Assembly: GCF_021129235.1 (NCBI RefSeq) | Contig: NZ_JAJOMA010000013.1 | Span: forward strand, 1-64,000 | Origin: Kineosporia mesophila | Lineage (GTDB): Bacteria > Actinomycetota > Actinomycetes > Actinomycetales > Kineosporiaceae | Direction: 5' to 3' | Length of the DNA stretch: 64,000 bases | Shown: positions 14,835-57,069 of the stretch, piece after piece | Numbering within the stretch: the first letter of the stretch is position 1 | Layout: the number at the start of each line of letters is the position of its first letter | Position numbers and translations under genes: made by a program | The notes under the pieces: generated by a model | Database searches by the model: none | The model's input: only the letters and a program-made list of their open reading frames with translations | Told to the model about the DNA's origin: nothing

Positions 14835-14917
14835 CGTGATCATGCAGAACCTCCCCGGAGTTCTAGAACTCTCCGCGCCACAGTTCTAGAACGCTGGGGA
14901 GGTTCTGCATGATCACG
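14835..14917. repeat. Palindromic repeat A (83 bp)
   Basis: Outer arms of 22 bp are perfectly inverted (left begins CGTGATCATGCAGAACC, right ends GGTTCTGCATGATCACG). Inside are two copies of the palindrome GTTCTAGAAC. It lies 15 bp after the exporter stop and before ispE. It matches repeat F over its full length except for paired changes in the arms and a variable centre. Confidence 0.9.
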
Positions 14918-14983
14918 GAGTGGATCTTGGGGGTCTCGCCCGGGATGTGGGTGCCTCGTTCGGAAGGGGTGCCCCGGATTGCA

Positions 14984-14989
14984 TAGAGT
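14984..14989 (+). promoter_or_regulatory. Candidate -10 box for leaderless ispE
   Basis: TAGAGT matches TANNNT and ends 6 nt before the ispE ATG, and no Shine-Dalgarno is visible. A weak -35-like TTCGGA lies 19 nt upstream. Confidence 0.5.
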
Positions 14990-14995
14990 GGTCGC

Positions 14996-15940
14996 ATGGC
15001 GGCGACAAGAACGGTGATCGCGCGCGCGCCCGCCAAGATCAATCTTGAGTTGCGGGTGGGCCCGGTCCGGGACGACGGCTTTCACGAGCTCGCCACGGTG
15101 TTCCACGCCGTGGCGCTGTTCGACGACCTGACCGCGCGGGCCACCGAGCCCGGCTCGGGGGTCTCGATCACGGTCGACGGCATCCAGGCCGACGAGGTGC
15201 CCACCGACGACTCGAACCTGGCCGTGAAGGCCGCGAAGCTGCTGGCCGCGCACATCGGCCTGGAATCGGCCGACGTGGCGTTCGAGCTGCGCAAGGGCAT
15301 CCCGGTGGCGGGCGGCATGGCCGGTGGCTCGGCCGACGCCGCAGCCGCCCTGGTGGCCTGCGACGCGCTCTGGCACGCCGGGCTCGACCGCGAGCAACTG
15401 CTGCACCTGGCCGCGCAACTCGGGTCGGACGTCCCCTTTTCGCTGCTCGGTGGCACCGCGATCGGCAGCGGCCGGGGCGAGCTGCTCACCCCGGTGCTGG
15501 CCCGCGGTGAGTACACCTGGGTGATCGCGCTGGCCGAGGGCGGCCTGTCCACGCCCGGTGTCTACGGGCAGATCGACCGGATGCGCGAGGCCGGTGAGGC
15601 CCCGCAGCCCACGCCCGGGCCCGAGATCGACGACGCCCTGATGGCCGCGTTGCGCGCCGGTGACGCCGCGGCCCTGGGCGCCCGCCTGCACAACGAGCTG
15701 GAGCCCGCCGCGCTGGCGATGGCCCCCCAGCTGGAACGCGCGCTGGAGATCGGCCGCAAGGTCGGCGCGCTCGGTGGCATCGTGTCCGGCTCCGGCCCGA
15801 CCACGGTGTTCCTGGCCCGCGACTCCAGTCACGCCCTCGATCTCGCGGTCGCCCTGACCGCGTCCGGAGCGGCGGCCGATGTGCGACGCGCACACGGTCC
15901 GGTGCCCGGTGCCCGTCTCGTCGAATCGGTGCGTGGTTAA
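14996..15940 (+). CDS. ispE: 4-diphosphocytidyl-2-C-methyl-D-erythritol kinase
   Basis: IspE phosphorylates CDP-methylerythritol in the MEP pathway of isoprenoid synthesis. The 314-residue GHMP kinase opens ARAPAKINLELRVGPVRDDGFHEL (substrate Lys-Asn motif), has the ATP loop IPVAGGMAGGSADAAAAL and the C-terminal GGIVSGSGPTTVFL motif. Length is typical of actinobacteria. It is followed after 5 nt by the ABC-F gene, so both are probably on one mRNA starting at the TAGAGT promoter. In mycobacteria ispE directly follows rsmA; here the fused exporter intervenes. Confidence 0.95.
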   Translation: MAATRTVIARAPAKINLELRVGPVRDDGFHELATVFHAVALFDDLTARATEPGSGVSITVDGIQADEVPTDDSNLAVKAAKLLAAHIGLESADVAFELRKGIPVAGGMAGGSADAAAALVACDALWHAGLDREQLLHLAAQLGSDVPFSLLGGTAIGSGRGELLTPVLARGEYTWVIALAEGGLSTPGVYGQIDRMREAGEAPQPTPGPEIDDALMAALRAGDAAALGARLHNELEPAALAMAPQLERALEIGRKVGALGGIVSGSGPTTVFLARDSSHALDLAVALTASGAAADVRRAHGPVPGARLVESVRG

Positions 15941-15945
15941 GCCCA

Positions 15946-17769
<1,824 letters not shown>

Positions 17770-17777
17770 GACCTGGT

Positions 17778-17849
17778 CGTGATCATGCAATCCCCCAGCC
17801 TTCGGCCGGGAGGTGCCCCCACTTCCCGGAGGGGGATTGCATGATCACG
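17778..17849. repeat. Palindromic repeat B (72 bp)
   Basis: Outer arms begin CGTGATCATGCAATCCCCC and end with the exact inverse. The interior carries smaller inverted segments (AGCCTTCGGCCGGGAGG type). It fills the gap between two convergent genes, 8 bp from one stop and 5 bp from the other, where it can serve as a bidirectional terminator. Confidence 0.85.
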
Positions 17850-17854
17850 GGGGA

Positions 17855-18751
17855 CTACTTGACGGCGCCCAGGGACAGGCCGCGCACCAGCTTGTCCTGC
17901 GCCGCGAAACCGGCGATGAGCACCGGCAGCGATACCAGAGTGGCTGCCGCGCAGAGCTTCGCGAGGAACAGGCCCTCGCTGGTGATGAAGCCGACGAGGA
18001 ACACCGGCGACGTCGAGGCCGCGACCGCGGTCAGGCTCTTCGCCAGCAGGAACTCGTTCCAGCTAAAGATGAAGCAGATCAGGCTGGTGGCCGCGATGCC
18101 CGGGGTGATGATCGGGACGATCACGCTCCAGATCACCCGGAGCGTGCCGGCGCCGTCGACCTCGGCGGCCTCCATGATCTCCTTGGGCACCTCGGCCAGG
18201 AACGACTGCAGCATCCAGATCGCGATCGGCAGGTTCATCGCGGTGTAGAGGACGACCAGGATCCAGATGTTGTCCAGGCCACCGATTTTCTGGACCAGCA
18301 GGTAGATCGGCAGCAGCGCCGCGATCGAGGGCAGGAACTTGGTGGAGAGGAAGAAGAACATCACATCCGTCCACTTCTCCACCGGCTTGATCGACAGCGC
18401 GTAGGCCGCCGGGATAGCCAGCGCCAGCACCAGCAGCGTGGAGACGATGCTGGCGGTGGCCGAGTTGATCAGGAACGGCCCGACCCCGCGGTCGAACAGC
18501 GCGGAGTAGTTGTCGAGCGTGAACCCGGCGAGCAGGGTCGGCGGGTTGGTCGCGGCGTCCGCCTCGCTGTGGAACGAGGTGAGGAACATCCAGGCCACGG
18601 GGGCGAAGAAGATCAGGGTGAGGACCCAGGCCGTCGTCGTCCAGACGAAGCCACCGGTCTCGGCGAGGTCACCCTCGCCCTGGGCCGACTTCTTCTTGCG
18701 CCGGTTCAAGATGGTTCCGGACTTGGGTGTTTCGGTCGTCTGGGCGCTCAT
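17855..18751 (-). CDS. Carbohydrate ABC transporter permease, MalG-like
   Basis: The 298-residue inner permease subunit has a cytoplasmic tail of about 45 residues, then six membrane helices. The EAA loop that docks the ATPase reads EAAEVDGAGTLRVIWSVIVPIITPG in part, the signature of the CUT1/MalG family. The start codon overlaps the stop of the other permease gene by one base (TGATG), so the two are co-translated. No ATPase gene is in this operon, which is usual in actinobacteria where a shared MsiK-type ATPase serves several importers. The sugar is unknown. Confidence 0.9.
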   Translation of the reverse strand: MSAQTTETPKSGTILNRRKKKSAQGEGDLAETGGFVWTTTAWVLTLIFFAPVAWMFLTSFHSEADAATNPPTLLAGFTLDNYSALFDRGVGPFLINSATASIVSTLLVLALAIPAAYALSIKPVEKWTDVMFFFLSTKFLPSIAALLPIYLLVQKIGGLDNIWILVVLYTAMNLPIAIWMLQSFLAEVPKEIMEAAEVDGAGTLRVIWSVIVPIITPGIAATSLICFIFSWNEFLLAKSLTAVAASTSPVFLVGFITSEGLFLAKLCAAATLVSLPVLIAGFAAQDKLVRGLSLGAVK

Positions 18752-19743: not shown

Positions 19744-19772
19744 TGCCACTCCTCAGGGTTGAGACGTCGGTT

Positions 19773-21143: not shown

Positions 21144-21185
21144 GAATCCTCCTTGACTGTGCGGGACCATTCTGAGGCGAGAAGT

Positions 21186-21222
21186 TACGTATTAACTACT
21201 TATGGTGATGACAAGGTTGTCA
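21186..21222 (-). promoter_or_regulatory. Importer promoter with overlapping operator candidate
   Basis: On the reverse strand TTGTCA and TACGTA are separated by 17 nt, a good sigma-70-like spacing. The -35 hexamer lies inside the inverted repeat TGACAA-GG-TTGTCA (21209-21222), which could be an operator, for example for the neighbouring DeoR regulator. Confidence 0.45.
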
Positions 21223-21301
21223 GAACTAGGTGCAGTCGGGCCGTTGCTGATCGTGCGTCTTTCGGTTGTCGGATCCTTGCCTGCGGGGCGGCCGTGAGGT
21301 G

Positions 21302-25067: not shown

Positions 25068-25139
25068 TCCCCCCTGGTGTAACGGCAGCACACAGGCCTT
25101 TGGAGCCTTGAGGTACCTGTTCGAATCAGGTGGGGGGAG
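25068..25139 (+). tRNA. tRNA-Gln (anticodon TTG)
   Basis: A 72-nt cloverleaf can be drawn: acceptor TCCCCCC/GGGGGGA with discriminator G, D-arm GTGTAACGGCAGCAC, anticodon loop CTTTGGA with TTG at 25100-25102, T-arm ACCTG-TTCGAAT-CAGGT. The outermost anticodon-stem pair (C27-T43) is mismatched. CCA is not encoded. Its position just before glmU is common in actinobacteria. Confidence 0.93.
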
Positions 25140-25173
25140 CTTCTGGCATTCGCGTTCTGGAGGGTGTTCGTCC

Positions 25174-26625: not shown

Positions 26626-27065
26626 CCCACCGGGCTCGGCCCCGTCATGGTGCGCGCCCGTACCGCAACCCCGTGTTCGTGATCAGGCAAAGCGCCCCCG
26701 GCGTTCTGGAACTCTCAGCGCGACAGTCCGGGAACTCCGGTGATACTTCGCCTGATCACGGAGGGTTGTAGAGAGCATTGGTGGGGCTTCGCCCGGATTC
26801 CGGGGCCGGCGGATTGCAAGATCGTCAAGAAAGAGGAGGTGGGGTCAGGTGTACGGGCGAATCTGGGCCCCGGCCGGTCATGTACAGTGGTCCGGTTACC
26901 TCGGCGAGGGTTGCAGCCAACATCAAGCGCAACCGTGATCGACGCGGACATCACTACGTGCATGGCGCGCCTGTGACTCCGCCGGGTGTGCCGCCACTCA
27001 TATCGTTTTAGGCAGTCTGATTCTGTGCGCGACCTCGGTCGCGCCCGTGATTGAGGAGATCTGTT
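26626..27065 (+). promoter_or_regulatory. 440-bp region: repeat C and the rplY leader; no prs gene
   Basis: After glmU comes palindromic repeat C (26678-26760). Further on, TACAGT at about 26884 is a plausible -10 box, giving an rplY leader of about 180 nt. This ends in a perfect hairpin GCGCGACC-TC-GGTCGCGC (27027-27044) 8 nt before the GAGGAG site. No coding frame is convincing, and the ribose-phosphate pyrophosphokinase gene usual here is missing. Confidence 0.5.
26678..26760. repeat. Palindromic repeat C (83 bp, degenerate)
   Basis: It has the same length as repeats A and F. Outer arms CGTGATCAGGCAAAG and CTTCGCCTGATCACG pair with one mismatch. The interior still shows traces of the TTCTAGAAC modules (GTTCTGGAAC, GGGAACTCC). 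It begins 53 bp after the glmU stop. Confidence 0.8.
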
Positions 27066-38160: not shown

Positions 38161-38232
38161 CCTTCGTCGGCACCGGGTGGGCGGGATCGGTATCATTGCC
38201 GGTTCCGCCCACTTTGCGCGTTCTTTCACGGT

Positions 38233-38238
38233 TACCCT
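38233..38238 (+). promoter_or_regulatory. Candidate -10 box for the second GH16 gene
   Basis: TACCCT matches TANNNT and ends 6 nt before the GTG at 38245, with no Shine-Dalgarno in between. This fits a leaderless transcript. Confidence 0.4.
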
Positions 38239-38244
38239 GTTCCT

Positions 38245-39131
38245 GTGAAACGTGTGCTGGCGGTGGTTTCCCTGGTGGTGGTCATCGGGCTGGCGGTCGT
38301 TCTTCTCCGCAGCGAGACCAAGAGCACGATGGAAGACGATTCGGGGCGGCTTTCGCGCGACGGCTGGGGCCTGGTCTGGGCGGACGAGTTCGAGGGCGGC
38401 ACGGTCGACCCGGCGAACTGGGTGGTCGAGCACGAGTCCACCTACGGCGACGGCGGTGGTCAGGTCTCCTGCCTGATGAACCGGCCGGAGAACGTCTCGG
38501 TGGCCGACGGCCGGCTGCGGCTCACGGCTCTTCGTGAGGACGATCCGCTGGAGTGCGGCAAGGGCCGGGACGAGCGCTTCCCGCGGGGGAGGGACTACAG
38601 CTCCGCCCACCTGTCCACGAAGGGGTTGCACGAGTGGACCTACGCCCGGTTCGAGATCCGGGCCGAACTTCCCGTGCAGAAGGGCGTCTCGAAGGGTATG
38701 TGGCCGGCGTTCTGGGGGCCCGGCCGACCGAGGGTGGCACCGGCGAGATCGACGTACTGGAGGCCGTCGGCAGCGGTCCGGGTGAGTCACAGTTCGACAA
38801 GGCGCACCAGACCATCTGGTACGACTATGTGGGCACGCACGAGAAGCAGGGCCAGGAGCACAGTTTCCCGGCCGGGCAGGAACCCGGTGAGGGCATGCAC
38901 ACCTATACCGTCGACTGGTCACCCGACCGGATCGTCTGGTACATCGACGATCTGCCGGTCTACGAGCGCACCGAAGACACCACCGGCTGGCTGGCCTCGA
39001 CCTTCGACAAGCCCTTCTACCTGCGGGTTAATCTGGCGGTCGGGGGTAGCTGGCCCGGAGATCCCACGGCCGACACCCGGTTTCCGGCCACCTACGACAT
39101 TGACTACGTGCGGGTGTATCAGCGAACCTGA
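38245..39131 (+). pseudogene. Second GH16 hydrolase gene, interrupted by a -1 frameshift
   Basis: The first frame gives a signal anchor and the GH16 N-terminal half (VWADEFEGGTVDPANW, YSSAHLSTKGLHEW, MWPAFW) up to about 38718. The rest (RPTEGGTGEIDVLEAVGSG through DIDYVRVYQRT) continues in the -1 frame to the stop at 39129-39131. The shift falls in a run of five G (38714-38718). The catalytic motif EIDVLE lies after the shift, so the unshifted product (which would run on to 39144 in the wrong frame) is inactive. A one-base deletion, a sequencing error or slippage at GGGGG are all possible. Both halves align well with the upstream GH16 protein, so it was recently functional or still is by frameshifting. 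It lacks the N-terminal binding domain. Confidence 0.85.
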
Positions 39132-44677: not shown

Positions 44678-46530
44678 CACGAACCTCCGCGGGACGGTTG
44701 CTTCTTCGGGTCACCGGGACCGGGCGCGTCGCCGATGATCGGCTGCGGCCGGGTCACCGGGGGCACACCGGTGCTGTGCTCGCCGTGGGGTTCGCCGGAG
44801 CGCCCGGTGCCGTTACGTGGCGCCGAGACGGTGCGGGCCGGCCAGCCGGTGCGGCCCGGAACCGGCGCGGACTCAACCGGGGACTCAACCGGGGACTCAA
44901 CCGGGGACTCAACCGGGGACTCAACCGAGGGCCCGGCCGAGGGCCCGGCCGAGGGCCCGGCCGAAGACGTGGTCCGTGGACCAGCCGAAGACACGACCGA
45001 AGGCCCGATCGAAGACCTGGCCGATGGACCCGCCACAGAGCCGGCCGGGTTCTCGATGCTGAACCCACGCTCCGCGACCGGGCCGGATTCGCGCAAAGAC
45101 ACCGGTCGCACATGGGCACCGGCCGGATGACCGGCGCGGCGGGCCGGGCGGGACGGCAACAGGATCACACCGTGCACCTGAGCCCCGGCGTGACGCAGTT
45201 CGCGCACGATGGCAGTGATCTCGGGCAGGCGCGTGACCTTGCGCCGGATCACCAGCAGGACGGCCGAGCACGACGGGGCGAGCATGAGCGCCGTGCTCGG
45301 ATCGGTGACGTTGATGCCGTCCACCAGCACCACGTCGGCGTCGCCGGCCAGGGAGGTGAGGTCGGTACCGGCCTTGACCGCGCCCTCCTCACCGAAAGAC
45401 CGCACCGGGCCCGGCCGGTTCGGTGAGAACTCCAGCGCGCCCCGGTTGAGGGCGACGGCGTCGTCCGCGCACAGCAGCACGGTGCGGGTGTGGGCGCCGA
45501 CGGCCTCGGCCAGTTTCGAGACCAGGTCGGAGGAAACACTGTTGCGCACGGGCATGACCAGCACCGGGCTCATCCGGGCCGCGTTGAGCGGAGCGGCCAC
45601 CACCGCCCCGAGCCGGCGCAACGCCTCGGTCTCGGCCCCCGGGGAAGTCTTTCCGCGCCGGGTGGTGATTTCGGTGATGATGACCGGACCGAGCTCGGAC
45701 TCCACCTGCTCGCGGTCGCGCACCCGCTGGTCGGTGCGGTCACGCAGCAGCGCCAGCACCAGGCCACCGACCAGGCCGATGGCCAGGCCGGCGACGAGCA
45801 GCACGGGTCGCCCGATACCGGAGGCCCCGGACGGGGGCTGGGCCGAGCCGACCTGCTCACCGGCCTGCCGGGAGGCGCCGCCGAGCTGGGCCCGCTGCCC
45901 CCGCAGCTGCTGCAGCACGCTGCTCAGCGAGCTCACGCGGGCCTTGGCATTGGCCCGGGTGACCTCGTTCGTGCTGGTGATGGCCCGGTCCTGGGCCTCT
46001 TCCTGCTGCTGCGTCAGATCGTCGATCTGCCGGCCGAGTTCCTTGTCCAGCGCGTTGATCTGGGCCTTGATGGCGTCGGCCCGGTAGTTCAGGTACGCCT
46101 GGGCGAACGCGTCGGCGCCCTGGGCGGCCCGCTCGGGCGAGGTCGCGGTGAAGGCGATGCGGAGCACCTGGCTGTCGGCCGGGTTGGTGACTTTCACCCG
46201 GGAGATCAGGTCGGATGCCGACAGGTCACTCGTCATCAGCTCCGCGGCGCCGGCAGCGACCGAGCTGGAGGTCACCACCTCGGACTCGGTCGCGGGGTTC
46301 ACCGCCCGCACCGCCCCGGCGCTGGTGGTGAGCGGGTTGTCCGGGAGCGAGGCGAGCTTGACCACGGAACCGGCCGTGTAGCTGGGCGAGGCGGTGATGG
46401 ACCAGGCCGCGGCCAGCAGACCGCCGGCCACCGTGCACAGCATCAGGATGCCGACCCGGCGGCGCAGGGCGTGCAGCACCTGGCCCACCGTCACGGTCTG
46501 ACTGCCGGATGAGGAGTGCGTGGTGGTCAC
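44677..46530 (-). CDS. Wzz/chain-length-determinant protein with degenerate kinase-like domain
   Basis: The 617-residue protein has a Wzz domain with two membrane helices (about 28-48 and 243-262) enclosing an extracellular coiled region, then a cytoplasmic domain shaped like a bacterial tyrosine kinase. Where a Walker A is expected the sequence reads VMPVRNSVSSDLVSKLAEAVG in part, without GKT/S, so ATP-dependent kinase activity is unlikely. A VLVDGIN strand remains in the Walker B position. The tail is low-complexity with repeated ESPV and AGPS units and no tyrosine cluster. It probably sets polymer length without tyrosine phosphorylation. GTG 46530 has GGAGAG about 10 nt upstream. Confidence 0.88.
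   Translation of the reverse strand: MTTTHSSSGSQTVTVGQVLHALRRRVGILMLCTVAGGLLAAAWSITASPSYTAGSVVKLASLPDNPLTTSAGAVRAVNPATESEVVTSSSVAAGAAELMTSDLSASDLISRVKVTNPADSQVLRIAFTATSPERAAQGADAFAQAYLNYRADAIKAQINALDKELGRQIDDLTQQQEEAQDRAITSTNEVTRANAKARVSSLSSVLQQLRGQRAQLGGASRQAGEQVGSAQPPSGASGIGRPVLLVAGLAIGLVGGLVLALLRDRTDQRVRDREQVESELGPVIITEITTRRGKTSPGAETEALRRLGAVVAAPLNAARMSPVLVMPVRNSVSSDLVSKLAEAVGAHTRTVLLCADDAVALNRGALEFSPNRPGPVRSFGEEGAVKAGTDLTSLAGDADVVLVDGINVTDPSTALMLAPSCSAVLLVIRRKVTRLPEITAIVRELRHAGAQVHGVILLPSRPARRAGHPAGAHVRPVSLRESGPVAERGFSIENPAGSVAGPSARSSIGPSVVSSAGPRTTSSAGPSAGPSAGPSVESPVESPVESPVESPVESAPVPGRTGWPARTVSAPRNGTGRSGEPHGEHSTGVPPVTRPQPIIGDAPGPGDPKKQPSRGGS
44870..44964. repeat. 12-bp tandem repeats in the Wzz-like C-terminus
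   Basis: Five copies of GACTCAACCGGG are followed by three copies of GAGGGCCCGGCC. Both are in-frame and encode the repeated ESPV and AGPS units of the protein tail. They are not a CRISPR array. Confidence 0.85.
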
Positions 46531-48173: not shown

Positions 48174-50435
48174 ATGAACGGATTCAGACGCCTGTCATTG
48201 TTCGCCGTGGGGCTATTGTCCGCGGTCTCCGTCGCTCTCGTCCCGGCCGGCCCCGCGCAGGCGGTACAGGGTTCCGCGCCCGGGTCGGCCGCTCCGAGCT
48301 GGCAGACCAACGGGGTGGTGCGCGCCATTGCCGCCGCCAACGGAAATGTCTATGTCGCAGGAGACTTCACCCGGGTCCGGCCGCCCGGCGCGGCCTCCGG
48401 CGCGAACGAGACCACCCGCAACTACCTGGCCGCCTTCAACGCCACGACCGGCGCCCTGGTGGCCTCGTTCAACGCGAACCTGAACGGCCTGGTGCGTTCG
48501 CTCGACGTCAGCCCGGACGGTGCCACGCTCTACGTCGCGGGCGACTTCACCTCGGCCGGGGGTGCGAGCCGCAGCCGGGTGGCCGCGTTCAGCACCTCCA
48601 CCGGCAGCCTCACCAGCTGGGCCCCGGTCGCCGACTACCGGGTCTACGCCGTCACCGCGGGCAGCTCGTCCGTCTATCTGGGCGGCGGGTTCGGCCGGGT
48701 GAACAACGTCTCCCGGCTGCGGCTGGCCCGGGTCAACACCACCACCGGGGCGACGGTCACGGCGTTCAACGCCTCGGCCGACGGCGTGGTCTACGGCCTC
48801 GACCTCTCGGCCGCTGAGGACAAGCTCTACGTGGCGGGGGCTTTCGACAGTCTGGACGGCGACGCGACGTACGACCGGGCCGGTGCGCTGGACGCCACCG
48901 ACGGCACGCTCGAGCCGTTCGGGGCCGGCTCGGTGATCCCCACGGCCAGCAGCGCCTGCTCGGTGCAGATCAAAGCGGTCACGGTGGATGGGGACTCGGC
49001 CTACTTCGGGGCCGAAGGCTCCGGGGGTGGCTGCTTCGACGGGACGTTCGCGGCGAACCAGTCGGACGGATCGCTGAAGTGGGTGAGCCGGTGCCTGGGG
49101 GCGACGCAGGGGCTCACCGTGCTGAACGGTCTGCTCTACACCGGGTCCCACTCGCACGACTGCACGGGTGACGCCTCGTTCGATCCCGATGCCTTCCCCG
49201 AGAGCGGCTGGTCCAACGGGTTGTCGCGGCACCTGCTCTCCCGGTCGACCGACACCGGCGCGGTGGGCAGCTGGTACCCGAACACGAACGGCGGCACCGG
49301 AGCCGGTCTGGGCCCGCGGGTGCTGGCCACCGACGGCAACCAGGTCTTCGTCGGCGGCGAGTTCACCACCGTGAACAATGTTGCGCAGCAGGGCTTCACC
49401 CGGTTCTCGCCGGCCGCGAGCCCGGTCGCCCTACCGGCCCGCCCGGCTGCACCCGTCGCGGTCGCCCGGGGAGGGGGCCGGATCTCGGTCTTCGTCCAGT
49501 CCCCGCTCGACCTGGACGACACCGATCTGGTGGTGCGGCTGTACCGCGACAACGGCACCACACCGATCGCGACGCAGGACGTGCACTCCCTGTTCTGGCG
49601 TCAGCCGGTAGCCGCGTTCGAAGACGCCGGCCTGGCCAACGGCAGCAGTCACACCTACGCGGTGGACGTGGCTCAGGCCAACGGTACCGGGGTCAGCCCG
49701 CGGGCGACGTCGGCCGCGGTCACGGTGGCGAACAGCAGTCCGTCGTACCAGGCCGCGGTCGAGGCCGATTCACCGTCCCTGTACTGGCGTCTGGGGCAGT
49801 CGGCCGGGCCGGTGGCGGCCGATCACTCCGACCAGCTCGACGGTGGGACCTTCGCCGGGGGAGTCACCCGGGGTCAGTCCGGGGCGGTTGCCGGCGACAC
49901 GGCGGTCACCTTCAACGGCAGCACGGGTTACGTCTCGAGTGAGAAGACGCAGCCGGCCCCGTCGTCGTTCAGCGTCGAGGCCTGGGTGCGCACCACCACC
50001 GGGTCGGGTGGCCGGATCGTCGGCTTCGGCAACAACCGCGGGGGGATCGACTTCAGCGGTAACCCGGCCGTCAGCAGCCAGTACGACAAGCACCTGTACA
50101 TGACCGACGACGGACGGATCACGTTCGGCGTGTACACCGGCGGCTTCGCCACGCTCACCAGCACCGCCCCGCTGAACGACGACGGCTGGCATCACGTCGT
50201 CGGGACCCAGGGCGCGAACGGGATGCGACTGTACGTCGACGGCGAGTTGCAGGGCCAGAACACCACCACGGTGAACCAGTCGTACAACGGGTACTGGCGC
50301 GTCGGCGGTGACAACCTGAACAGCTGGCCGAACCAGCCCACCAGCCAGTTCTTCAACGGCCGCATCGACGAGGTGGCGGTGTACCCGACGGCCCTGTCGG
50401 CCGCCGCGGTCGCGGCGCACTACGCAGCGTCCTGA
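48174..50435 (+). CDS. Secreted beta-propeller / Fn3-like / LamG protein
   Basis: The 753-residue secreted protein has a signal peptide cleaved near AQA30. Residues about 40-420 are repeated VYVAGDFT, LYVAGDFTSAGG, VYLGGGFGRV, LYVAGAFDSL and VFVGGEFTTVNN units, the same propeller type as in the fibrinogen-like protein at 33462. A short beta domain (about 425-520) leads to a LamG/concanavalin domain (about 525-753) with WVRTTTGSGGRIVGFG and DGWHHVVGTQ. No catalytic motif is seen; glycan or surface binding is inferred. It closes the polysaccharide locus and is followed by palindromic repeat D. Confidence 0.87.
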   Translation: MNGFRRLSLFAVGLLSAVSVALVPAGPAQAVQGSAPGSAAPSWQTNGVVRAIAAANGNVYVAGDFTRVRPPGAASGANETTRNYLAAFNATTGALVASFNANLNGLVRSLDVSPDGATLYVAGDFTSAGGASRSRVAAFSTSTGSLTSWAPVADYRVYAVTAGSSSVYLGGGFGRVNNVSRLRLARVNTTTGATVTAFNASADGVVYGLDLSAAEDKLYVAGAFDSLDGDATYDRAGALDATDGTLEPFGAGSVIPTASSACSVQIKAVTVDGDSAYFGAEGSGGGCFDGTFAANQSDGSLKWVSRCLGATQGLTVLNGLLYTGSHSHDCTGDASFDPDAFPESGWSNGLSRHLLSRSTDTGAVGSWYPNTNGGTGAGLGPRVLATDGNQVFVGGEFTTVNNVAQQGFTRFSPAASPVALPARPAAPVAVARGGGRISVFVQSPLDLDDTDLVVRLYRDNGTTPIATQDVHSLFWRQPVAAFEDAGLANGSSHTYAVDVAQANGTGVSPRATSAAVTVANSSPSYQAAVEADSPSLYWRLGQSAGPVAADHSDQLDGGTFAGGVTRGQSGAVAGDTAVTFNGSTGYVSSEKTQPAPSSFSVEAWVRTTTGSGGRIVGFGNNRGGIDFSGNPAVSSQYDKHLYMTDDGRITFGVYTGGFATLTSTAPLNDDGWHHVVGTQGANGMRLYVDGELQGQNTTTVNQSYNGYWRVGGDNLNSWPNQPTSQFFNGRIDEVAVYPTALSAAAVAAHYAAS

Positions 50436-50443
50436 ATCCTGTT

Positions 50444-50487
50444 CGTGATCGTGCAAAGGTTCCCCGGGGAACCTTTGCACGATCACG
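50444..50487. repeat. Palindromic repeat D (44 bp, perfect)
   Basis: A perfect 22-bp inverted repeat without spacer starts CGTGATCGTGCAAAGG and ends with its exact inverse. It lies 9 bp after the stop of the propeller/LamG gene. The core of the longer elements is missing. Confidence 0.88.
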
Positions 50488-50547
50488 GACGAAGGGCTGT
50501 GGGAGTGCCTGCTCGCGCTCCGGCCTGCTCTGATGCAGAATAGTTGC

Positions 50548-51594
50548 GTGAGCAACGACTCGAACGCGTCCAACTCGACGGCCGGCGCCTACGTGACCTC
50601 CGGACAGGAATTCACGCGCGACACCAACTACATCACCACCCGGATCACCCGGGACGGTGCCGAGGGCTATCCGGTCGAACCGGGTCGCTACCGCCTGGTG
50701 GTGGCGCGGGCGTGTCCGTGGGCCAACCGCGCCATCATCGTGCGCCGGCTCCTGGGCCTGGAAGACGCGATCTCGATGGGCGTCTGCGGTCCGACCCACG
50801 ACGCGCGCAGCTGGACCTTCGACCTCGACGAGGGCGGCGTCGACCCGGTGCTGGGCATCCCCCGCATCCAGGATGCCTACTTCGCCCGGTTCCCCGACTA
50901 TCCGCGCGGCATCACGGTTCCCGCGATCGTCGACGTGCCGACCGGTCAGGTGGTCACCAACAACTACCCGCAGATCACCCTCGACCTCTCCACCGAGTGG
51001 ACGCAGTTCCACCGGGAGGGTGCGCCCCAGCTCTACCCCGAGCACCTGCGGGCCGAGATCGACGAGGTCGCGCTACGGGTGTTCAAGGATGTCAACAACG
51101 GGGTCTACCGCTGTGGTTTCGCGGGTGACCAGAAGTCGTACGAGCGGGCCTACCAGCGGTTGTTCGATGCGATGGACTGGCTGGAAGAGCGCCTGACGAG
51201 CCGGCGCTACCTGGTCGGCGACACCATCACCGAGGCCGACGTGCGGCTGTTCACCACGCTGGCCCGCTTCGACCCGGTCTACCACGGGCACTTCAAGTGC
51301 AACCGGCAGAAGCTGACCGAGTTTCCCGCCCTCTGGGGCTACGCGCGAGACCTGTTCCAGACCCCGGGTTTCGGCGACACGACCGACTTCGACCAGATCA
51401 AGAAGCACTACTACGTGGTGCACGAGGACATCAACCCGACGAAGATCGTCCCGGCCGGCCCGGCCCTGGACAACTGGCTCACGCCGCACCACCGCGAGCA
51501 GCTCGGCGGCCGTCCCTTCGGTGACGGCACCCCGCCCGGTCCGGTGCGTGAGGACGAGCGGGTGCCTGCCGCCCACACACCTCTGGTGGCCTGA
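50548..51594 (+). CDS. Glutathionyl-hydroquinone reductase-like (GST superfamily)
   Basis: The 348-residue protein has a thioredoxin-like N-terminal domain with ARACPWANR, where Cys56 is the active-site thiol of the CPWA motif of Xi-class GSTs (YqjG/ECM4). A helical C-terminal domain contains YLVGDTITEADVRLFTTLARFD. The family reduces glutathionyl-hydroquinones; actinobacteria mostly use mycothiol, so the natural thiol may differ. GTG 50548 has CAGAAT 6 nt upstream (possible leaderless -10); ATG 50533 is the alternative start. Confidence 0.88.
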   Translation: MSNDSNASNSTAGAYVTSGQEFTRDTNYITTRITRDGAEGYPVEPGRYRLVVARACPWANRAIIVRRLLGLEDAISMGVCGPTHDARSWTFDLDEGGVDPVLGIPRIQDAYFARFPDYPRGITVPAIVDVPTGQVVTNNYPQITLDLSTEWTQFHREGAPQLYPEHLRAEIDEVALRVFKDVNNGVYRCGFAGDQKSYERAYQRLFDAMDWLEERLTSRRYLVGDTITEADVRLFTTLARFDPVYHGHFKCNRQKLTEFPALWGYARDLFQTPGFGDTTDFDQIKKHYYVVHEDINPTKIVPAGPALDNWLTPHHREQLGGRPFGDGTPPGPVREDERVPAAHTPLVA

Positions 51595-51604
51595 GAAGTC
51601 AAGA

Positions 51605-51752
51605 TTGAGGACGTCGCCAAGCCTCCCCGAGGCTCGGTACCGTCCGCTGGGGTCGGTGTCGGGGAAGGTTCGCATGATCACGGCCAGGAAGAACCCCGTG
51701 ATCATGCGAACCTTCCCCGACCCGGGAGACCGGGGCTCAACGTCGTCCTCAA
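51605..51752. repeat. Palindromic repeat E: inverted-core element in a nested palindrome
   Basis: A perfect 24-bp inverted repeat (51660-51683 and 51696-51719, spacer 12 nt) contains the CATGATCACG word on the inside rather than at the ends. It is nested in an outer pair TTGAGGACG (51605-51613) and CGTCCTCAA (51744-51752). It fills the gap between two convergent genes. Confidence 0.82.
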
Positions 51753-51760
51753 GCAAGAAA

Positions 51761-52936
51761 TCAGACGGCCTGCCCCTTACCTCCTGCCGCGTAGGCCACG
51801 TCGCGCAGGTCCACGTACTGCGGGCGCAGGTCGGCCGAGTTGTCGTGCCGGGCCAGCTCGAGCGCCATCTGGGCCGCCGAGGCGAGCGTGACGTGCCGGT
51901 ACCAGCCCCGCCAGCTGCGCACCTCGTAGTGCCCCAGCCCGGTCTTCTGCTTGACCGCCCGGCAGTGCGCGGCAGCCCCCTCGATGAGCTGCACGATGGG
52001 TACCACTTCGGCCAGGCCGGCGTGGGGGCGCAGGTAGGCCGTGTAGTACGACCGGGCCCGGGCGTTGCGGCTGGTGCCCGAGAGCATCAGGTACGACATC
52101 TCGATGCGCGAGGGGTCGGAGCTGCGGGTGGAGAAACGGTGCAGCACCGTGTTGCGTAACTGGAGCATCTCGTGACCCGGTGGCATCGGAGTGGTGCCGT
52201 TGGGCTGGCTCGACTCGTCGGTGATGGCTCGTCCGACGCCACCGGCCTGCATCTCGCCGGCACTGCCCGCGACCAGGTGCTGAACCCCGTAACGCCGTAA
52301 GAGGCGATGAAGGATGTTCTTCTCGGTGCACACGAGATTGCAGGCCACCCAGACCGGGCGGATGGAACTTTCCCAGGCCCGGCGAATCATCTCCGCCGCG
52401 ATCGCGGACTTGCTGCGGTAAACCACTTCGGGCGGGATCTGGGCCTGCTCCCGGCGTTGTGGGTCGCTCACCCAGGAGGGCGGCAGATACAGCTCGGAGT
52501 CGATCAGGAATGCCTGCCGGTCGGCGGTCAGGTAGAAGAGCAGCAGGCCGATCTGGCAGTTCTCCACGCGCTGGGTGTCGTGACTGTACTGACGTTCGAC
52601 CGCCACCGCGTTGCGGCCCTTTTTGGGGAAGGCGATCTCGGTGAGGAACAGGGTGCCGCCGGTACGGCCGCCCGCCTGAATCGCAATGGCGCGCAGTTCC
52701 TCCCGGACGGAGAACTCGTCCCAGCGGGCCGAGGTGAGCAATCTCTGCACACCGTCGGCACGAATTTCCCCGGAATAATGACCGACTGTCTCGCCCCGCC
52801 GGAGACCGGCGGTATGTGCTCTGGGCAGATCGACAAGATAGTTCCAGGCGCGCTTACGCGGTTCGGCGCGGCTGAAATTGTGTGCGATCCGATCGTAGAC
52901 GACCTTCAGTGATCTCTCGTACGCGGGATCGTGCAC
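51761..52936 (-). CDS. IS701-like transposase homologue, catalytic residues substituted
   Basis: The 391-residue protein keeps IS701-family landmarks: DGVQRLLTSARWDEFSVREELR, KKGRNAVAVERQYS, RVENCQIGLLLFY, LIDSELYLPPSWVSD and the C-terminal GLGHYEVRSWRGWYRHVTLA. At the three DDE positions it differs: the first Asp is Thr99 (LTEI for VDET), the second is Asn200 (WVACN for WVTGD), and the Glu-Glu pair before the last motif is Ala-Ala (about 322-323). It is full length with no frameshift, so it looks domesticated rather than decayed. No terminal inverted repeats or target duplications are seen. GTG 52936 follows GGAGGGG. Confidence 0.8.
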   Translation of the reverse strand: MHDPAYERSLKVVYDRIAHNFSRAEPRKRAWNYLVDLPRAHTAGLRRGETVGHYSGEIRADGVQRLLTSARWDEFSVREELRAIAIQAGGRTGGTLFLTEIAFPKKGRNAVAVERQYSHDTQRVENCQIGLLLFYLTADRQAFLIDSELYLPPSWVSDPQRREQAQIPPEVVYRSKSAIAAEMIRRAWESSIRPVWVACNLVCTEKNILHRLLRRYGVQHLVAGSAGEMQAGGVGRAITDESSQPNGTTPMPPGHEMLQLRNTVLHRFSTRSSDPSRIEMSYLMLSGTSRNARARSYYTAYLRPHAGLAEVVPIVQLIEGAAAHCRAVKQKTGLGHYEVRSWRGWYRHVTLASAAQMALELARHDNSADLRPQYVDLRDVAYAAGGKGQAV

Positions 52937-53333
52937 GTGCCCCCTCCACAGATGCCCAGCGTCTCTTTCCCGCGAGGGGATTCGACCCGCCGTAATGCCC
53001 GGCCCCGTGCCGGGTGCGTTTCCGATCCGGATCATTTTATGAGTCGGCCGGATTTGCGCCAGGGCCCAGAATTTCTGATGGCCATCAGAGTGCTGTGCCG
53101 AACTCCCCCAACTGCCCATCAACTGTCGGTCAGATCCGGGTAGCAGCCGGTCGACCGCCTCCCGGCCTGCGGAAATCACCCGGGGTGGCCCGGGCGCCCG
53201 GCTCCGGCGGCGCCGGAGAATTCGCCGTAAGCTGACAGCGCCCCGGACTGCCCGTGCAGCCCGGCGCGTTGTGCTGTTCGCCCAGACCGCGACGACGCTG
53301 TTCGCAAAACCCCTAGTGCCAACCCCCGGAGCC
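52937..53333. promoter_or_regulatory. 397-bp divergent region between the transposase homologue and mfd
   Basis: No gene is evident. On the reverse strand TAAAAT (53034-53039) is a good -10 candidate for the leftward gene, giving a leader of about 90 nt. A short hairpin of CCCGG type lies near 52998-53013. No insertion-sequence end is recognisable. Confidence 0.4.
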
Positions 53334-56300
53334 ATGAGCCTCACCGGAATCCTCGACCTGCTCACCGCCGACCGTGCCGTGAGCGACGTTCTGCGGATCG
53401 CCCGCGAGGGCGGCGAGCCCCTGCTCGACCTCACCGGCCCGGCCGGTCTGCGCGCACCCCTGGTCGCCGCGCTGGCCGGCCCCGCCCCGGGAGGAGCCGG
53501 GCGACCCGTCCTGGCGGTGACCGCCACCGGCCGCGAGGCCGAGGACCTCGCCGCCGCGCTGCGCTGCTTCCTGCCCGAGCACGCCGTCGCCGAGTTCGGC
53601 GCCTGGGAGACGCTCCCGCACGAGCGCCTGAGCCCGCGCAGCGACACGGTCGGCCGGCGCATCGCCGTGCTGCGCCGTCTCGCCCACCCGGAGACCGACG
53701 AGCACGGCCCGGTGCAGGTCGTCGTGGCCCCCGTGCGCGCGGTGCTCCAGCCCGTCGTGCGGGGTCTGGGTGACCTCGAGCCGGTCGCTCTGCACGCGGG
53801 GCAGGAGGCCGAGCTGACCGAGGTGGTCGAGCGTCTGGCCGCCGCCGCGTACTCCCGTACCGACCTGGTCGAGCGCCGTGGCGAGTTCGCCGTGCGCGGT
53901 GGCATCCTCGACGTCTTCCCGCCCACCGAGGAGCACCCCCTGCGGGTGGAGTTCTGGGGCGACGACGTGGAGGAGATCCGCTACTTCGCGGTCGCCGACC
54001 AGCGCAGTCTGCACGTTGCCGAGACCGGCCTGTGGGCGCCGCCGTGCCGCGAGCTGCTGCTCACCGACGACGTCCGGGCGCGGGCGGCCGAGCTGGGCGA
54101 GCGCCTGCCCGGCGTGGCCGACCTGCTCGGCAAGGTCGCGGCCGGGCTGGCGGTCGAGGGTATGGAGTCGCTGACCCCGGTGCTCGTCGACGCGATGGAG
54201 TCGGTGCTCGACGTGCTGCCGGCCCACACCCACGTGGTGCTGGCCGACCCCGAGCGGATCCGCGCGCGGGCCCACGACCTGGTCGCCACCAGCGAGGAGT
54301 TCCTCCAGGCGAGCTGGCTGAGCGCGGCCGCGGGCAGCGCCGTGCCGGTCGACCTGGAGCCGGTGCTGGGCACGGGCTCGTTCTGGTCGCTGGCCGACGT
54401 GCGCGCGCACGCCCTCAAGCAGGGCCTGCCCTGGTGGACCATCTCGCCGTTCGGCCTGGACGAGACCGGTCAGGCCGCGCACGACGAGGGCGACGCGGGT
54501 GCAGTCGTGTTCGTACCCGAGGTGGTGGCCCCGGAGCCGTACCGCGGTGACCGTGAGCGCACCGTCGCCGACATCGGCGGCTGGCTGCACGACGGCTGGC
54601 GGGTCGCGGTGATCACCGAGGGCAGTGGCCTGGCCCGGCGCGTGGTGGAGATGCTGACCGAGGCCGACCTGGCCGCGGTGACCGTGGACGACCTCTCGCA
54701 GCCCCCGGCGCCGTCGGTGGCGGCGGTCGGCACCGGTCGCCTGCCGCAGGGGCTCATCGCCCCCGCGCTGAAGTTCGCGGTGCTCACCGAGACCGACCTG
54801 ACCGGCGGCACCGTCCCCGGCTCGACCACCAAGGACATGCGCCGGATGCCGGCGCGCCGCAAGAACGTGGTCGACCCGATGCAGCTCACCCCGGGTGACA
54901 ACGTGGTGCACGAGCAGCACGGTGTGGGGCGCTTCGTCGAGATGATGCAGCGCACCGTCGGAGGGGCCACCCGGGAGTACCTGGTGATCGAGTACGCACC
55001 GGGCAAGCGGGGGCAGCCGGGTGACCGGCTGTTCGTGCCGACCGACGCGCTCGACCAGGTCACCCGGTACGTGGGTGGCGAGCAGCCGACGCTGAACAAG
55101 CTCGGCGGCACCGACTGGGCCAAGACCAAGGGCCGGGCCCGCAAGGCGGTCAAGCAGATCGCCGGCGAGCTGATCCAGCTCTATTCGGCGCGCATGGCGA
55201 CCAGTGGGCACGCCTTCGGGCCGGACACGCCGTGGCAGCGCGAGCTGGAAGACGCCTTCGCCTACGTGGAGACGCCCGACCAGCTGGTCACCATCGAAGA
55301 GGTCAAGAAGGACATGGAGAAGACGGTCCCGATGGACCGGCTGATCTGTGGCGATGTCGGTTACGGCAAGACCGAGATCGCGGTGCGGGCGGCGTTCAAG
55401 GCGGTGCAGGACGGCAAGCAGGTGGCCGTGCTGGTGCCGACCACACTGCTGGTGCAGCAGCACCTGGACACGTTCGTCGAGCGGTACGTCAACTTCCCGG
55501 TCACGGTGAAGGGCCTGTCGCGCTTCTCCACCGACTCCGAGGCGAAGGCGGTGAAGGAGGGGATCAAAGACGGCTCGGTCGACGTCGTCATCGGTACCCA
55601 CCGTCTGCTCACCGGTGAGATCCAGTTCAAGGACCTGGGTCTCGTGGTGGTCGACGAGGAGCAGCGCTTCGGCGTCGAGCACAAGGAGCGCCTGAAGCAG
55701 CTGCGCACCAACGTCGACGTGCTGGCCATGAGTGCCACCCCGATCCCGCGCACCCTGGAGCTCGCGGTCACCGGTATCCGCGAGATGTCCACGCTGGCCA
55801 CACCTCCCGAAGAGCGGCACCCGGTGCTGACGTTCGTGGGTGGCTACGACGAGCGGCAGATCTCGGCGGCGATCCGGCGGGAACTGCTGCGCGAGGGTCA
55901 GGTCTTCTTCATCCACAACCGGGTGGAGTCGATCGACCGCACCGCCGCGCGGCTGCACGAGCTGGTGCCCGAGGCCCGGATCGCCACCGCCCACGGCAAG
56001 ATGGGTGAGCACGACCTCGAGCAGGTGATGGTCGACTTCTGGGAGAAGCGGTTCGACGTGCTGGTCTGCACGACCATCATCGAGACCGGCCTGGACATCT
56101 CGAACGCCAACACGCTGATCCTGGAACGGGCCGACATGATGGGCCTCTCGCAGCTGCACCAGCTGCGGGGCCGGGTCGGCCGAGGTCGCGAGCGGGCCTA
56201 CGCGTACTTCCTCTACCCGCCCGAGAAGCCGCTCACCGAAACGGCTCTCGACCGGCTCCAGACGATCGCGGCGAACACCGACCTGGGCGCCGGCATGCGC

Positions 56301-56939
56301 GTGGCGATGAAAGACCTGGAGATCCGCGGCGCGGGGAACCTGCTCGGCGGCGAGCAGTCCGGGCACATCGCGGGCGTCGGCTTCGACCTGTACATCCGGC
56401 TGGTCGGCGAGGCGGTCGCGGAGTACCGCGGCGACAACGAGCAGGAGCACCAGGAGGTCAAGATCGATCTCCCGGTGGACGCGCACCTGCCCACCACCTA
56501 CCTGCCCGACGAGCGGCTGCGCCTGGAGGCCTACCGCAAGCTGGCCGAGGTCTCCTCGGACGAGGCGCTGGACGCGGTGAAGGCCGAGCTGGTCGACCGT
56601 TACGGCCCGATCCCCGACGTGGTGACGAACTTGCTCGAGGTTGCCCGGCTGCGCATCCTGGCCCGGCAGGCCGGGCTCACCGAGATCACCACGATGGGCA
56701 AGGCGATCCGTTTCGGCCCGATCGACCTGCCCGACTCGGCCCGCATGCGCCTGCACCGTCTCTACCCGGGCACGCAGGACAAGCCCGCCACGAAAACGGT
56801 GCTGGTGCCCGCCCCGACCACGGCGCGCATCGGCGGCCGGCCGCTGCGCGACGTCGCGGTGCTCTCCTGGGCTCGGGAATTCATCGAGTCGGTACTGATG
56901 GCGTCGGTGAAGGCGGCGGCGTCGGCCGCGAGCAGATAG
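53334..56939 (+). CDS. mfd: Transcription-repair coupling factor
   Basis: Mfd removes stalled RNA polymerase and recruits UvrA. The 1201-residue protein has the UvrB-like N-terminal modules, the RNA-polymerase-interaction domain (about 520-600, VHEQHGVGRF), a RecG-like translocase with GDVGYGKTEIAVRAAFKA, DEEQRFG, MSATPIPRTLELAV and QLRGRVGRGRERAYAYF, and the C-terminal TRCF domain. ATG 53334 gives the usual start MSLTGILDLL; a longer in-frame extension lacks a site. It resumes the conserved mfd-lipoprotein-mazG-eno block after the accessory insertions. Confidence 0.96.
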   Translation: MSLTGILDLLTADRAVSDVLRIAREGGEPLLDLTGPAGLRAPLVAALAGPAPGGAGRPVLAVTATGREAEDLAAALRCFLPEHAVAEFGAWETLPHERLSPRSDTVGRRIAVLRRLAHPETDEHGPVQVVVAPVRAVLQPVVRGLGDLEPVALHAGQEAELTEVVERLAAAAYSRTDLVERRGEFAVRGGILDVFPPTEEHPLRVEFWGDDVEEIRYFAVADQRSLHVAETGLWAPPCRELLLTDDVRARAAELGERLPGVADLLGKVAAGLAVEGMESLTPVLVDAMESVLDVLPAHTHVVLADPERIRARAHDLVATSEEFLQASWLSAAAGSAVPVDLEPVLGTGSFWSLADVRAHALKQGLPWWTISPFGLDETGQAAHDEGDAGAVVFVPEVVAPEPYRGDRERTVADIGGWLHDGWRVAVITEGSGLARRVVEMLTEADLAAVTVDDLSQPPAPSVAAVGTGRLPQGLIAPALKFAVLTETDLTGGTVPGSTTKDMRRMPARRKNVVDPMQLTPGDNVVHEQHGVGRFVEMMQRTVGGATREYLVIEYAPGKRGQPGDRLFVPTDALDQVTRYVGGEQPTLNKLGGTDWAKTKGRARKAVKQIAGELIQLYSARMATSGHAFGPDTPWQRELEDAFAYVETPDQLVTIEEVKKDMEKTVPMDRLICGDVGYGKTEIAVRAAFKAVQDGKQVAVLVPTTLLVQQHLDTFVERYVNFPVTVKGLSRFSTDSEAKAVKEGIKDGSVDVVIGTHRLLTGEIQFKDLGLVVVDEEQRFGVEHKERLKQLRTNVDVLAMSATPIPRTLELAVTGIREMSTLATPPEERHPVLTFVGGYDERQISAAIRRELLREGQVFFIHNRVESIDRTAARLHELVPEARIATAHGKMGEHDLEQVMVDFWEKRFDVLVCTTIIETGLDISNANTLILERADMMGLSQLHQLRGRVGRGRERAYAYFLYPPEKPLTETALDRLQTIAANTDLGAGMRVAMKDLEIRGAGNLLGGEQSGHIAGVGFDLYIRLVGEAVAEYRGDNEQEHQEVKIDLPVDAHLPTTYLPDERLRLEAYRKLAEVSSDEALDAVKAELVDRYGPIPDVVTNLLEVARLRILARQAGLTEITTMGKAIRFGPIDLPDSARMRLHRLYPGTQDKPATKTVLVPAPTTARIGGRPLRDVAVLSWAREFIESVLMASVKAAASAASR

Positions 56940-56941
56940 CT

Positions 56942-56983
56942 GATTGAGGACGCGGGTGGGCCCCGCGCGTCCCCAATCCTTTT
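56942..56983 (+). terminator. Intrinsic terminator after mfd
   Basis: GATTG-GGACGCG pairs with CGCGTCC-CAATC around a GC-rich loop and is followed by CTTTTG. It lies directly after the mfd stop and just before repeat F. Confidence 0.85.
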
Positions 56984-56986
56984 GTT

Positions 56987-57069
56987 CGTGATCATGCAAA
57001 ACCTCCCCGGAGTTCTAGAACTGTGATGTCAGGAGTTCTAGAACGCCGGGGAGGTTTTGCATGATCACG
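56987..57069. repeat. Palindromic repeat F (83 bp)
   Basis: Outer 24-bp arms are perfect inverses (left begins CGTGATCATGCAAAACC). Two AGTTCTAGAAC palindromes lie inside. Compared with repeat A, GCAGAACC/GGTTCTGC is replaced by GCAAAACC/GGTTTTGC, a matched change in both arms. Confidence 0.9.

What the first reader, a model, noticed from the sequence alone, without database searches (positions are those of the whole stretch)
14835..57069. A family of palindromic elements at gene 3' ends with compensatory arm changes
Six full copies (14835-14917, 17778-17849, 26678-26760, 50444-50487, 51660-51719, 56987-57069) and one solo end (10049) share CGTGATCATGCA-type arms. Three are exactly 83 bp with two inner TTCTAGAAC-type palindromes; others are 72, 60 and 44 bp. 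All six full copies lie within about 55 bp of a stop codon and none is in a gene. Between copies A and F a change in one arm is matched by the opposite change in the other arm, and the remaining copies have different but still self-complementary arms. This argues for selection on a DNA cruciform or RNA hairpin, not just shared descent. The sequence shows the repeats and their placement; a role as REP/MITE elements recruited as transcript ends is inference.
Basis: partly seen in the sequence, partly recalled or inferred. Interest (0 to 1): 0.78.

Follow-up and report, generated by a model that had tools for sequence, protein, structure and literature searches.

The report
Palindromic repeats at bacterial gene ends
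A soil bacterium carries a large family of DNA palindromes placed mostly just after genes; the same ends recur in some other soil bacteria around different but still self-matching middles, which suggests a little-known mobile repeat whose moving enzyme is not the one known for similar repeats.

Summary
The repeats are real and belong to a genome-wide family in a Kineosporia species. In 1.66 Mb of its genome I found 57 copies: 44 lie within 55 bp of a stop codon (17% expected), 21 between convergent genes, 2 between divergent genes, and 3 overlap genes, two of them in frame. The sister species G005 shares 21 of 25 comparable sites. Palindromes with the same exact ends (CGTGATCATGC...GCATGATCACG) occur patchily in the order (12 of 248 genomes) and class (7 of 296), mostly with lineage-specific interiors; 24 of 32 such copies read elsewhere lie beside a coding stop (18% for random intergenic points).

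The arms covary (55 double-change cells against 17 shuffled). But mismatches show no G-U preference, one stem position is unpaired in 32 of 35 83-bp copies, and no U-tract follows. RNA-hairpin selection and classical intrinsic termination are not supported.

The architecture matches REPINs, but the REPIN transposase domain (Y1_Tnp) was not found in 10 of 11 carriers tested. My reading is a REPIN-like mobile palindrome moved by an unidentified enzyme, tolerated and possibly used at gene 3' ends. New variant of a known kind; mechanism open.

The parts
14835..14917 (.). Copy A, 83 bp: 22-bp arms CGTGATCATGCAGAACCTCCCC, two GTTCTAGAAC palindromes, variable centre
   Evidence: 14 bp after the stop of ORF 11326-14820; in G005 a 111-bp mosaic form at the same site; no element seen at the site in G001, G002, G003
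17778..17849 (.). Copy B, 72 bp: CGTGATCATGCA ends around a GC-rich module (CCCCCAGCCTTCGGCCGGGAGGTGCCCCC)
   Evidence: between convergent genes, 8 and 5 bp from their stops; 74-bp form in G005; G002 and G003 have other hairpins there, by eye
26678..26760 (.). Copy C, 83 bp, decayed (CGTGATCAGGCA ends, degenerate inner palindromes)
   Evidence: the G005 copy at the same site is near consensus; G002 and G003 carry a single CGTGATCAGGC end there
50444..50487 (.). Copy D, 44-bp core form: two 22-bp arms without a loop
   Evidence: no element found at the G005 counterpart, which is about 1 kb longer
51658..51721 (.). Copy E, inside-out form: two half-elements facing outwards, 26-bp arms, 12-bp spacer
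   Evidence: (I18, 100% complementary)
56987..57069 (.). Copy F, 83 bp, near-consensus
   Evidence: folded as DNA -42.6 kcal/mol, z -16.8; 112-bp mosaic in G005
10049..10060 (-). Solo end (TGCATGATCACG on the + strand), a remnant or half-element
   Evidence: a comparable loss leaving one end is seen at C1:154645 in G005

Best explanation
The repeats are a family of REPIN-like, non-autonomous palindromic mobile elements. The inverted ends CGTGATCATGCA are the part recognised by a trans-acting factor (inferred). The interior has to pair with itself but is otherwise free between lineages: a 44-bp loopless core, a 60-62-bp form with one GTTCTAGAAC, an 83-bp form with two GTTCTAGAAC flanking a variable centre, and mosaics that carry a GC-rich module in one arm. 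Copies spread within a genome by a mobilising enzyme that is probably not a RAYT (its Y1_Tnp domain was not found in most carriers tested; the enzyme itself is unknown). They persist mainly just after stop codons, where they do little harm and may be used as a two-way 3' boundary (inferred). Conservation of the arms acts on DNA sequence and palindromy rather than on an RNA fold (inferred from the mismatch spectrum).
For: Copy number: pattern CGTGATCATGCAN{0,30}GTTCTAGAAC has 91+104 hits in G000 and 75+81 in G005, and 0 in the four other Kineosporia genomes and in 52 further genomes of the order. Placement. Gain or loss of copies: the allophanate hydrolase gene has two copies in G000 and one in G005, and G002 is 153 bp shorter there, a multiple of three; an inside-out unit at C1:316646 is absent from G005. 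Wide family: exact ends with palindromic interiors in 7 of 296 class genomes and 12 of 248 order genomes, reversed-pattern control 0 in every row; 24 of 32 copies read in other genomes have a coding ORF stopping within 55 bp, against 182 of 1000 random intergenic and 36 of 1000 random points of G000 by the same test. Constraint: of 8 orthologous 83/83 pairs, 6 have no difference in 36 arm bases while centres differ by 1-5 of 17 in the better orientation. The architecture equals that of REPINs as described in PMC3116915 (passages).
Against: No clean empty site with a target duplication was found and no mobilising enzyme was identified. G000 and G005 share 21 of 25 comparable sites, so recent movement is rare. 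The ends are fixed by the search pattern; only the palindromic, lineage-specific interiors and the location are free observations. Eight of the 32 copies read elsewhere had no coding stop within 55 bp. G192, with one copy, does have Y1_Tnp. The wide family could reflect inheritance of, or convergence on, a functional site rather than a mobile element.
Confidence: 0.6

Rival explanations
1. Domesticated bidirectional transcript ends: the hairpins stop RNA polymerase or shield mRNA 3' ends, and selection on the RNA fold keeps the arms paired.
For: 44 of 57 copies within 55 bp of a stop; 21 convergent against 5.6 expected. At two convergent sites G002 and G003 have ordinary hairpins, by eye, where G000 shows only the element (C5:17778, C5:90220). 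The RNA fold is very stable.
Against: No G-U preference; no T-tract (mean 1.13 T per 8 nt, 4 or more T in 6 of 172 ends); no terminator-like site in the scan of 50300-57200; other hairpins are not depleted beside elements once length is matched (6 of 19 observed, 5.1 expected); orientation is not tied to the gene in tandem settings (4 same, 4 opposite, 3 undefined).
Confidence: 0.2
2. Protein-binding or topological sites (like gyrase-binding BIMEs, recalled, or an ArgR-like box) kept between convergent genes; the palindrome is a DNA cruciform or a paired operator.
For: Arm sequence is conserved beyond pairing in 6 of 8 orthologous 83/83 pairs; the same ends recur in distant families; two GTTCTAGAAC palindromes spaced 23 bp; highest frequency per region between convergent genes (0.123 against 0.046 tandem and 0.009 divergent). 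The 12-mer is printed in PMC5839063 within an ARG box near SCO5864 from a fragment bound by ArgR in band-shift assays (passages read).
Against: Patchy distribution (no exact end-pattern copy in G001 or G004) does not suit an essential site; the ArgR paper marks SCO5864 as showing no differential transcription.
Confidence: 0.15
3. The covariation is a by-product of template switching between arms during replication, which makes palindromes perfect without selection.
For: 18 of 26 double-arm differences at orthologous sites keep the pair in both species (36 further differences are on one arm only); the centre of C1:1365 is inverted between species (3 mismatches inverted against 9 direct).
Against: Position 25/59 stays unpaired in 32 of 35 83-bp copies although it lies in the same stem, and 23/61 is paired in only 43%; flank complementarity is not above cross-paired flanks; many double-arm changes accompany replacement of the whole element by another type.
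Confidence: 0.12
4. DNA-uptake-signal-like 12-mers that occur as inverted pairs at terminators (comparison recalled).
For: Constant 12-mer, inverted pairs just after stop codons.
Against: Only 38 unpaired 11-mer ends were listed in 1.66 Mb and 6 of them lie in called genes, although genes cover about 88% of C1 and C5.
Confidence: 0.03

Closest known systems
REPINs (REP doublets forming hairpins, Pseudomonas; PMC3116915)
   Same: Two constant inverted ends, a length-constrained spacer that pairs with compensatory changes, many extragenic copies, solo ends as remnants (passages).
   Different: Y1_Tnp not found in 10 of 11 carriers tested; ends CGTGATCATGCA without a GTAG tag; concentrated at gene 3' ends, whereas that abstract calls the doublets randomly distributed in extragenic space.
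GTAG/CGTC-tagged REPs incl. Rickettsia palindromic elements (PMC3733652)
   Same: Short palindromes in many copies, some inside genes; the CGTC class also lacks a dedicated transposase (passages).
   Different: No unpaired GTAG or CGTC tag seen; the word Actinobacteria does not occur in that paper's main text.
Mosaic repeats of the BOX/BIME kind (recalled)
   Same: Modular combination of sub-units between common ends.
   Different: Sub-units are different and nested in a palindrome; comparison from recall only.
Integron attC sites (recalled)
   Same: Palindrome with conserved ends and a free tip, just after a gene, with a strand-defining mismatch.
   Different: No cassette array; chromosomal genes in conserved order with relatives; ends do not match the attC core boxes as I recall them.

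Membership tests
REPIN / RAYT-mobilised REP | Inverted doublet of a conserved end sequence with a pairing spacer | tested here: met
REPIN / RAYT-mobilised REP | RAYT (Y1_Tnp, PF01797) gene in the genome | tested here: not met
   0 matches in carriers G000, G005, G002, G003 and in 6 of 7 others; present in G192, which has a single copy. G004, without copies, has one match. Drafts may miss genes; G027, G442, G450 and G454 were not tested. The search detected 5 of 14 control genomes
REPIN / RAYT-mobilised REP | GTAG tag at the ends | tested here: not met
   ends read CGTGATCATGCA; the flank composition table shows no conserved GTAG
REPIN / RAYT-mobilised REP | Single-stranded excised intermediate | not testable with these tools
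   needs population reads
Intrinsic transcription terminator | Stable hairpin just after the stop codon | tested here: met
Intrinsic transcription terminator | U-tract after the hairpin | tested here: not met
Intrinsic transcription terminator | Transcript 3' ends at the element | not testable with these tools
   no RNA data held
MITE | Terminal inverted repeats shared with an autonomous element | tested here: inconclusive
   one gene between two half-elements (C1:144962-146086) was followed; its protein occurs once in the G000 sequence held; no systematic search for an autonomous element was made
MITE | Target-site duplication at filled against empty sites | tested here: inconclusive
   no site clean enough
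Known Rfam RNA family | Match above gathering score | tested here: not met
   only a tRNA at 25068-25139 in 14700-57200

The most novel reading that the evidence does not exclude
A class-wide superfamily of end-tagged palindromes in Actinomycetes, defined by CGTGATCATGCA inverted ends and lineage-specific self-complementary interiors, is inserted at or restricted to gene 3' ends by a conserved, still unknown non-RAYT recombinase or DNA-binding factor that reads the 12-bp ends.
Probability: 0.35. Interest if true: 0.75.

Novelty: new variant of a known kind. Interest (0 to 1): 0.6.

Why it matters
REPINs and many REPs are explained by RAYT transposases. A palindrome family with the same architecture, scattered over distant actinomycete families but without that domain in 10 of 11 carriers tested, and with one shared end sequence, points to a second way of making and keeping such repeats. 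It gives a simple handle (the 12-mer) for finding the factor, and a natural experiment on how insertions shape gene 3' ends. The mismatch analysis also shows that arm covariation, usually taken as proof of an RNA fold, can go with DNA-level constraint.

Tried and rejected
RAYT mobilisation: Y1_Tnp not found in 10 of 11 carriers tested. RNA-fold selection: no G-U preference. Outward palindrome growth by fold-back copying: flank complementarity not above cross-paired flanks (86 copies, one score of 10 or more against 0.33 expected; 57 copies of G000 alone, mean 0.390 against 0.401); one 18-bp extension exists in another genus (L260). Pre-existing CGTGATCACG target sites: 10 found in the G000 sequence held, 9 inside called genes, none an obvious empty site. 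Replacement of ordinary hairpins: 6 of 19 element-bearing against 49 of 91 element-free convergent regions have another stem of 9 or more (Fisher p 0.13), but length-matched windows give 5.1 of 19, so no depletion. The gene between two half-elements as autonomous partner: one copy only in the sequence held, at the same locus in G005 but inverted; its Pfam matches (REase_MTES_1575, AbiEi_1) are below the curated cut-offs. The 80 loci (1.48 Mb) held no paired element by a strict scan. Plasmid collection: no match. Literature: nine searches listed no paper that I recognised as describing this family; I saw listings only (one search lists 20 of 45 papers), and passages of PMC3116915, PMC3733652, PMC4666352 and PMC5839063. 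The library holds open-licence PMC papers only.

Limits of counts: gene calls come from my own ORF and hexamer caller, not a standard annotator. The uniform-intergenic null ignores promoter avoidance. The 25 orthologous sites come from 41 paired candidates on C1 and C5; 28 had a G005 counterpart in the stretches fetched, and three of these were dropped as spurious or compound before counting (C1:11466, 183513, 315196). The model counts (142 and 143, both strands counted, 150 candidates scored) are capped lower bounds. In one search one of five measures (further pair types, 20 against 17.7) was reached by 69 of 500 shuffles. The copies read elsewhere were chosen from the listed places, not at random.
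Full report
What was checked. The window lies in contig C5 of a 7.78-Mb draft genome, G000. The protein of ORF 14996-15940 (a GHMP kinase by Pfam; I take it for IspE) is 92% identical over the best segment to that of Kineosporia rhizophila JCM 9960. One contig of genome G001 has the same length as that strain's contig (734,817), so G001 is probably that strain. Among the six genomes of the genus held, G005 is closest (95% DNA identity over 2.8 kb) and G001-G004 are at 86-87%.

A genome-wide family. The pattern CGTGATCATGCAN{0,30}GTTCTAGAAC is found 91 times on one strand and 104 on the other in G000, with none for the reversed control. G005 has 75 and 81; the other four genomes of the genus and 52 further genomes of the order have none. 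In 1.66 Mb of G000 (21% of the genome) a looser scan found 57 paired elements: 27 of exactly 83 bp, 14 of 43-44 bp, 5 of 60-62 bp, and others up to 112 bp. The 83-bp form is a 22-bp arm CGTGATCATGCAAAACCTCCCC, three variable bases, GTTCTAGAACT, a centre of about 11 variable bases, and the mirror image. The 60-62-bp form has one GTTCTAGAAC-like palindrome and the 44-bp form none. Mosaics carry a GC-rich module in one arm; the 29-mer CCCCCAGCCTTCGGCCGGGAGGTGCCCCC occurs 9 times in G000 and in 2 of the other 393 class genomes searched.

Placement. By my own gene calls, 21 of 57 elements are between convergent genes, 31 in tandem regions, 2 in divergent regions and 3 overlap genes; uniform placement in intergenic space would give 5.6, 35.5 and 15.8. 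Forty-four of 57 lie within 55 bp of a stop codon against 17% expected (binomial p about 2e-23). In six copies the called stop codon is the TGA of the element's own CGTGATCA (distance -5). Two 44-bp copies sit in frame inside an allophanate hydrolase gene (Amidase and AH_C domains); G005 has one copy there, and in G002 the two aligned parts are 40 bp apart where G000 has 193 bp, a difference of 153 bp and a multiple of three.

Comparison of sites between species. Of 25 G000 sites with a G005 counterpart (flanks 86-98% identical), 21 are occupied in both and 12 have the same length; 26 arm positions differ on both arms (18 of them paired in both species) and 36 on one arm only. Where both have the 83-bp form (8 sites), 6 show no change in 36 arm bases; the other two show two one-arm changes (C5:90220) and three double plus three single changes (C5:26678, decayed in G000). 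Centres differ by 1-5 of 17 bases in the better orientation. At some sites the element has been exchanged for another type with the outer ends largely kept, for example 83 against 60 bp at C1:19769 and 104 against 61 bp at C1:282274. At C1:1365 the centre is inverted in G005. At C1:154645 G005 keeps only one end, which explains solo ends. In G001-G003 none of the C5 sites compared shows a paired element; some have other hairpins, and at C5:26678 G002 and G003 carry a single CGTGATCAGGC end. The 240 kb of G003 fetched held one element-like palindrome, and G002 and G003 have 3 and 2 exact end-pattern copies genome-wide, so the end family is older than the split while the 83-bp form is not seen outside G000 and G005.

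Covariation and what it means. On 22 core elements (18 from G000, 4 from G005) 12 of 22 pairs have changes on both sides and 55 cells have a double change, against 17 in shuffles (0 of 500) and at most 16 when slid; the number of further pair types is not above shuffles (69 of 500). Departures from pairing are 12 G-T, 30 A-C and 35 others in 54 of 57 elements, and in the sense strand of tandem genes 13, 19 and 28. An RNA fold should tolerate G-U over A-C; no such preference is seen. In 35 83-bp copies the pair 25/59 is unpaired in 32, mostly A-G or, in the other orientation, C-T (25 copies), and 23/61 is paired in 43%, while pairs 1-22 are 91-100% paired. The mismatch looks like a founder trait and argues against a general process that makes arms perfect. 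It also gives the element a direction, which does not follow the gene (4 same, 4 opposite, 3 undefined in tandem settings). So the arms seem constrained as DNA sequence.

Terminator or not. Copy F as DNA and copy A as RNA fold into long hairpins, but the 8 bases after the element hold 1.13 T on average, with 4 or more in 6 of 172 ends, and the terminator scan of 50300-57200 found none. Other hairpins are not rarer beside elements when length is matched. Placement fits a terminator, but also insertion where it does no harm.

A wider family. A covariance model made from the core elements also matched other genera. Reading those places showed the same ends with different interiors, for example CGTGATCATGCA-CTTTCGACTGGTCGAAAG-TGCATGATCACG in another genus of the family. 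The exact end pattern occurs in 7 of 296 class genomes (G000 41, G146 34, G034 12, G013 5, G128 4, G016 2, G192 1) and in 12 of 248 order genomes from 8 of 85 genera, with no control match in either. By eye, on the places listed, most interiors are self-complementary and alike within a carrier but not between carriers. Of 32 copies read in G002, G003, G007, G013, G016, G034, G128 and G146, 24 have a coding ORF (score 30 or more) stopping within 55 bp on at least one side; the same test gives 44 of 57 for G000 elements, 182 of 1000 random intergenic points and 36 of 1000 random points of G000. Left flanks are mostly C-rich and right flanks G-rich there as in G000. The ends are fixed by the pattern itself, so their constancy is not an independent result; families with other ends would be missed.

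What it is. The architecture is that of a REPIN: constant inverted ends, a spacer that pairs with compensatory changes, solo ends as remnants (PMC3116915, passages). The enzyme that defines REPINs was not found: no Y1_Tnp match in G000, G005, G002 or G003 nor in 6 of 7 other carriers. I therefore call it a REPIN-like element and not a REPIN. How it moves, and whether cells use it, is open. One lead: of the two papers found to print the 12-mer, one lists it within an ArgR-box sequence near SCO5864 of Streptomyces coelicolor (PMC5839063, passages).

Novelty. Nine literature searches of an open-licence library showed no description in their listings. I rate it a new variant of a known kind.

Noticed in passing
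G000 C1:516481-518298 (loci L156, L292; G005 L293): An allophanate hydrolase gene carries palindromic elements in frame: two in G000, one in G005, and 153 bp less in G002, like Rickettsia palindromic elements inside genes.
   Followed up: yes
G000 C1:144962-146086: A gene (weak REase_MTES_1575 and AbiEi_1 matches, below cut-off) lies between two inverted half-elements, and is in the opposite orientation at the same locus in G005.
   Followed up: partly
window 51605-51613 and 51744-51752: Copy E sits between TTGAGGACG and CGTCCTCAA, as if inserted within an older hairpin; G002 appears to have an uninterrupted hairpin there. Not tested statistically.
   Followed up: partly
L260 (G007:C78:36500-36900): In another genus one copy is flanked by a further 18 bp of complement on both sides, extending the palindrome to 78 bp.
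   Followed up: no
window 17792-17820 and eight other places in G000: The GC-rich module CCCCCAGCCTTCGGCCGGGAGGTGCCCCC also occurs in 2 of 393 other class genomes (G282 once, G414 four times), so it may be a repeat of its own.
   Followed up: partly
G000 C1:316646-316700: An inside-out unit with different arm types on its two halves is present in G000 and absent from G005, where the flanks join without it.
   Followed up: partly
window 44854-44949: A run of 12-bp tandem repeats (CGGGGACTCAAC and variants, D3).
   Followed up: no
window 37401-38672: Two stretches about 960 bp apart are 73-77% alike (D8, D9), perhaps a tandem gene duplication.
   Followed up: no
G000 C5:223506-223540: The assembly contig (223,556 bases) ends just after an element, which suggests that these repeats can break assemblies.
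   Followed up: no
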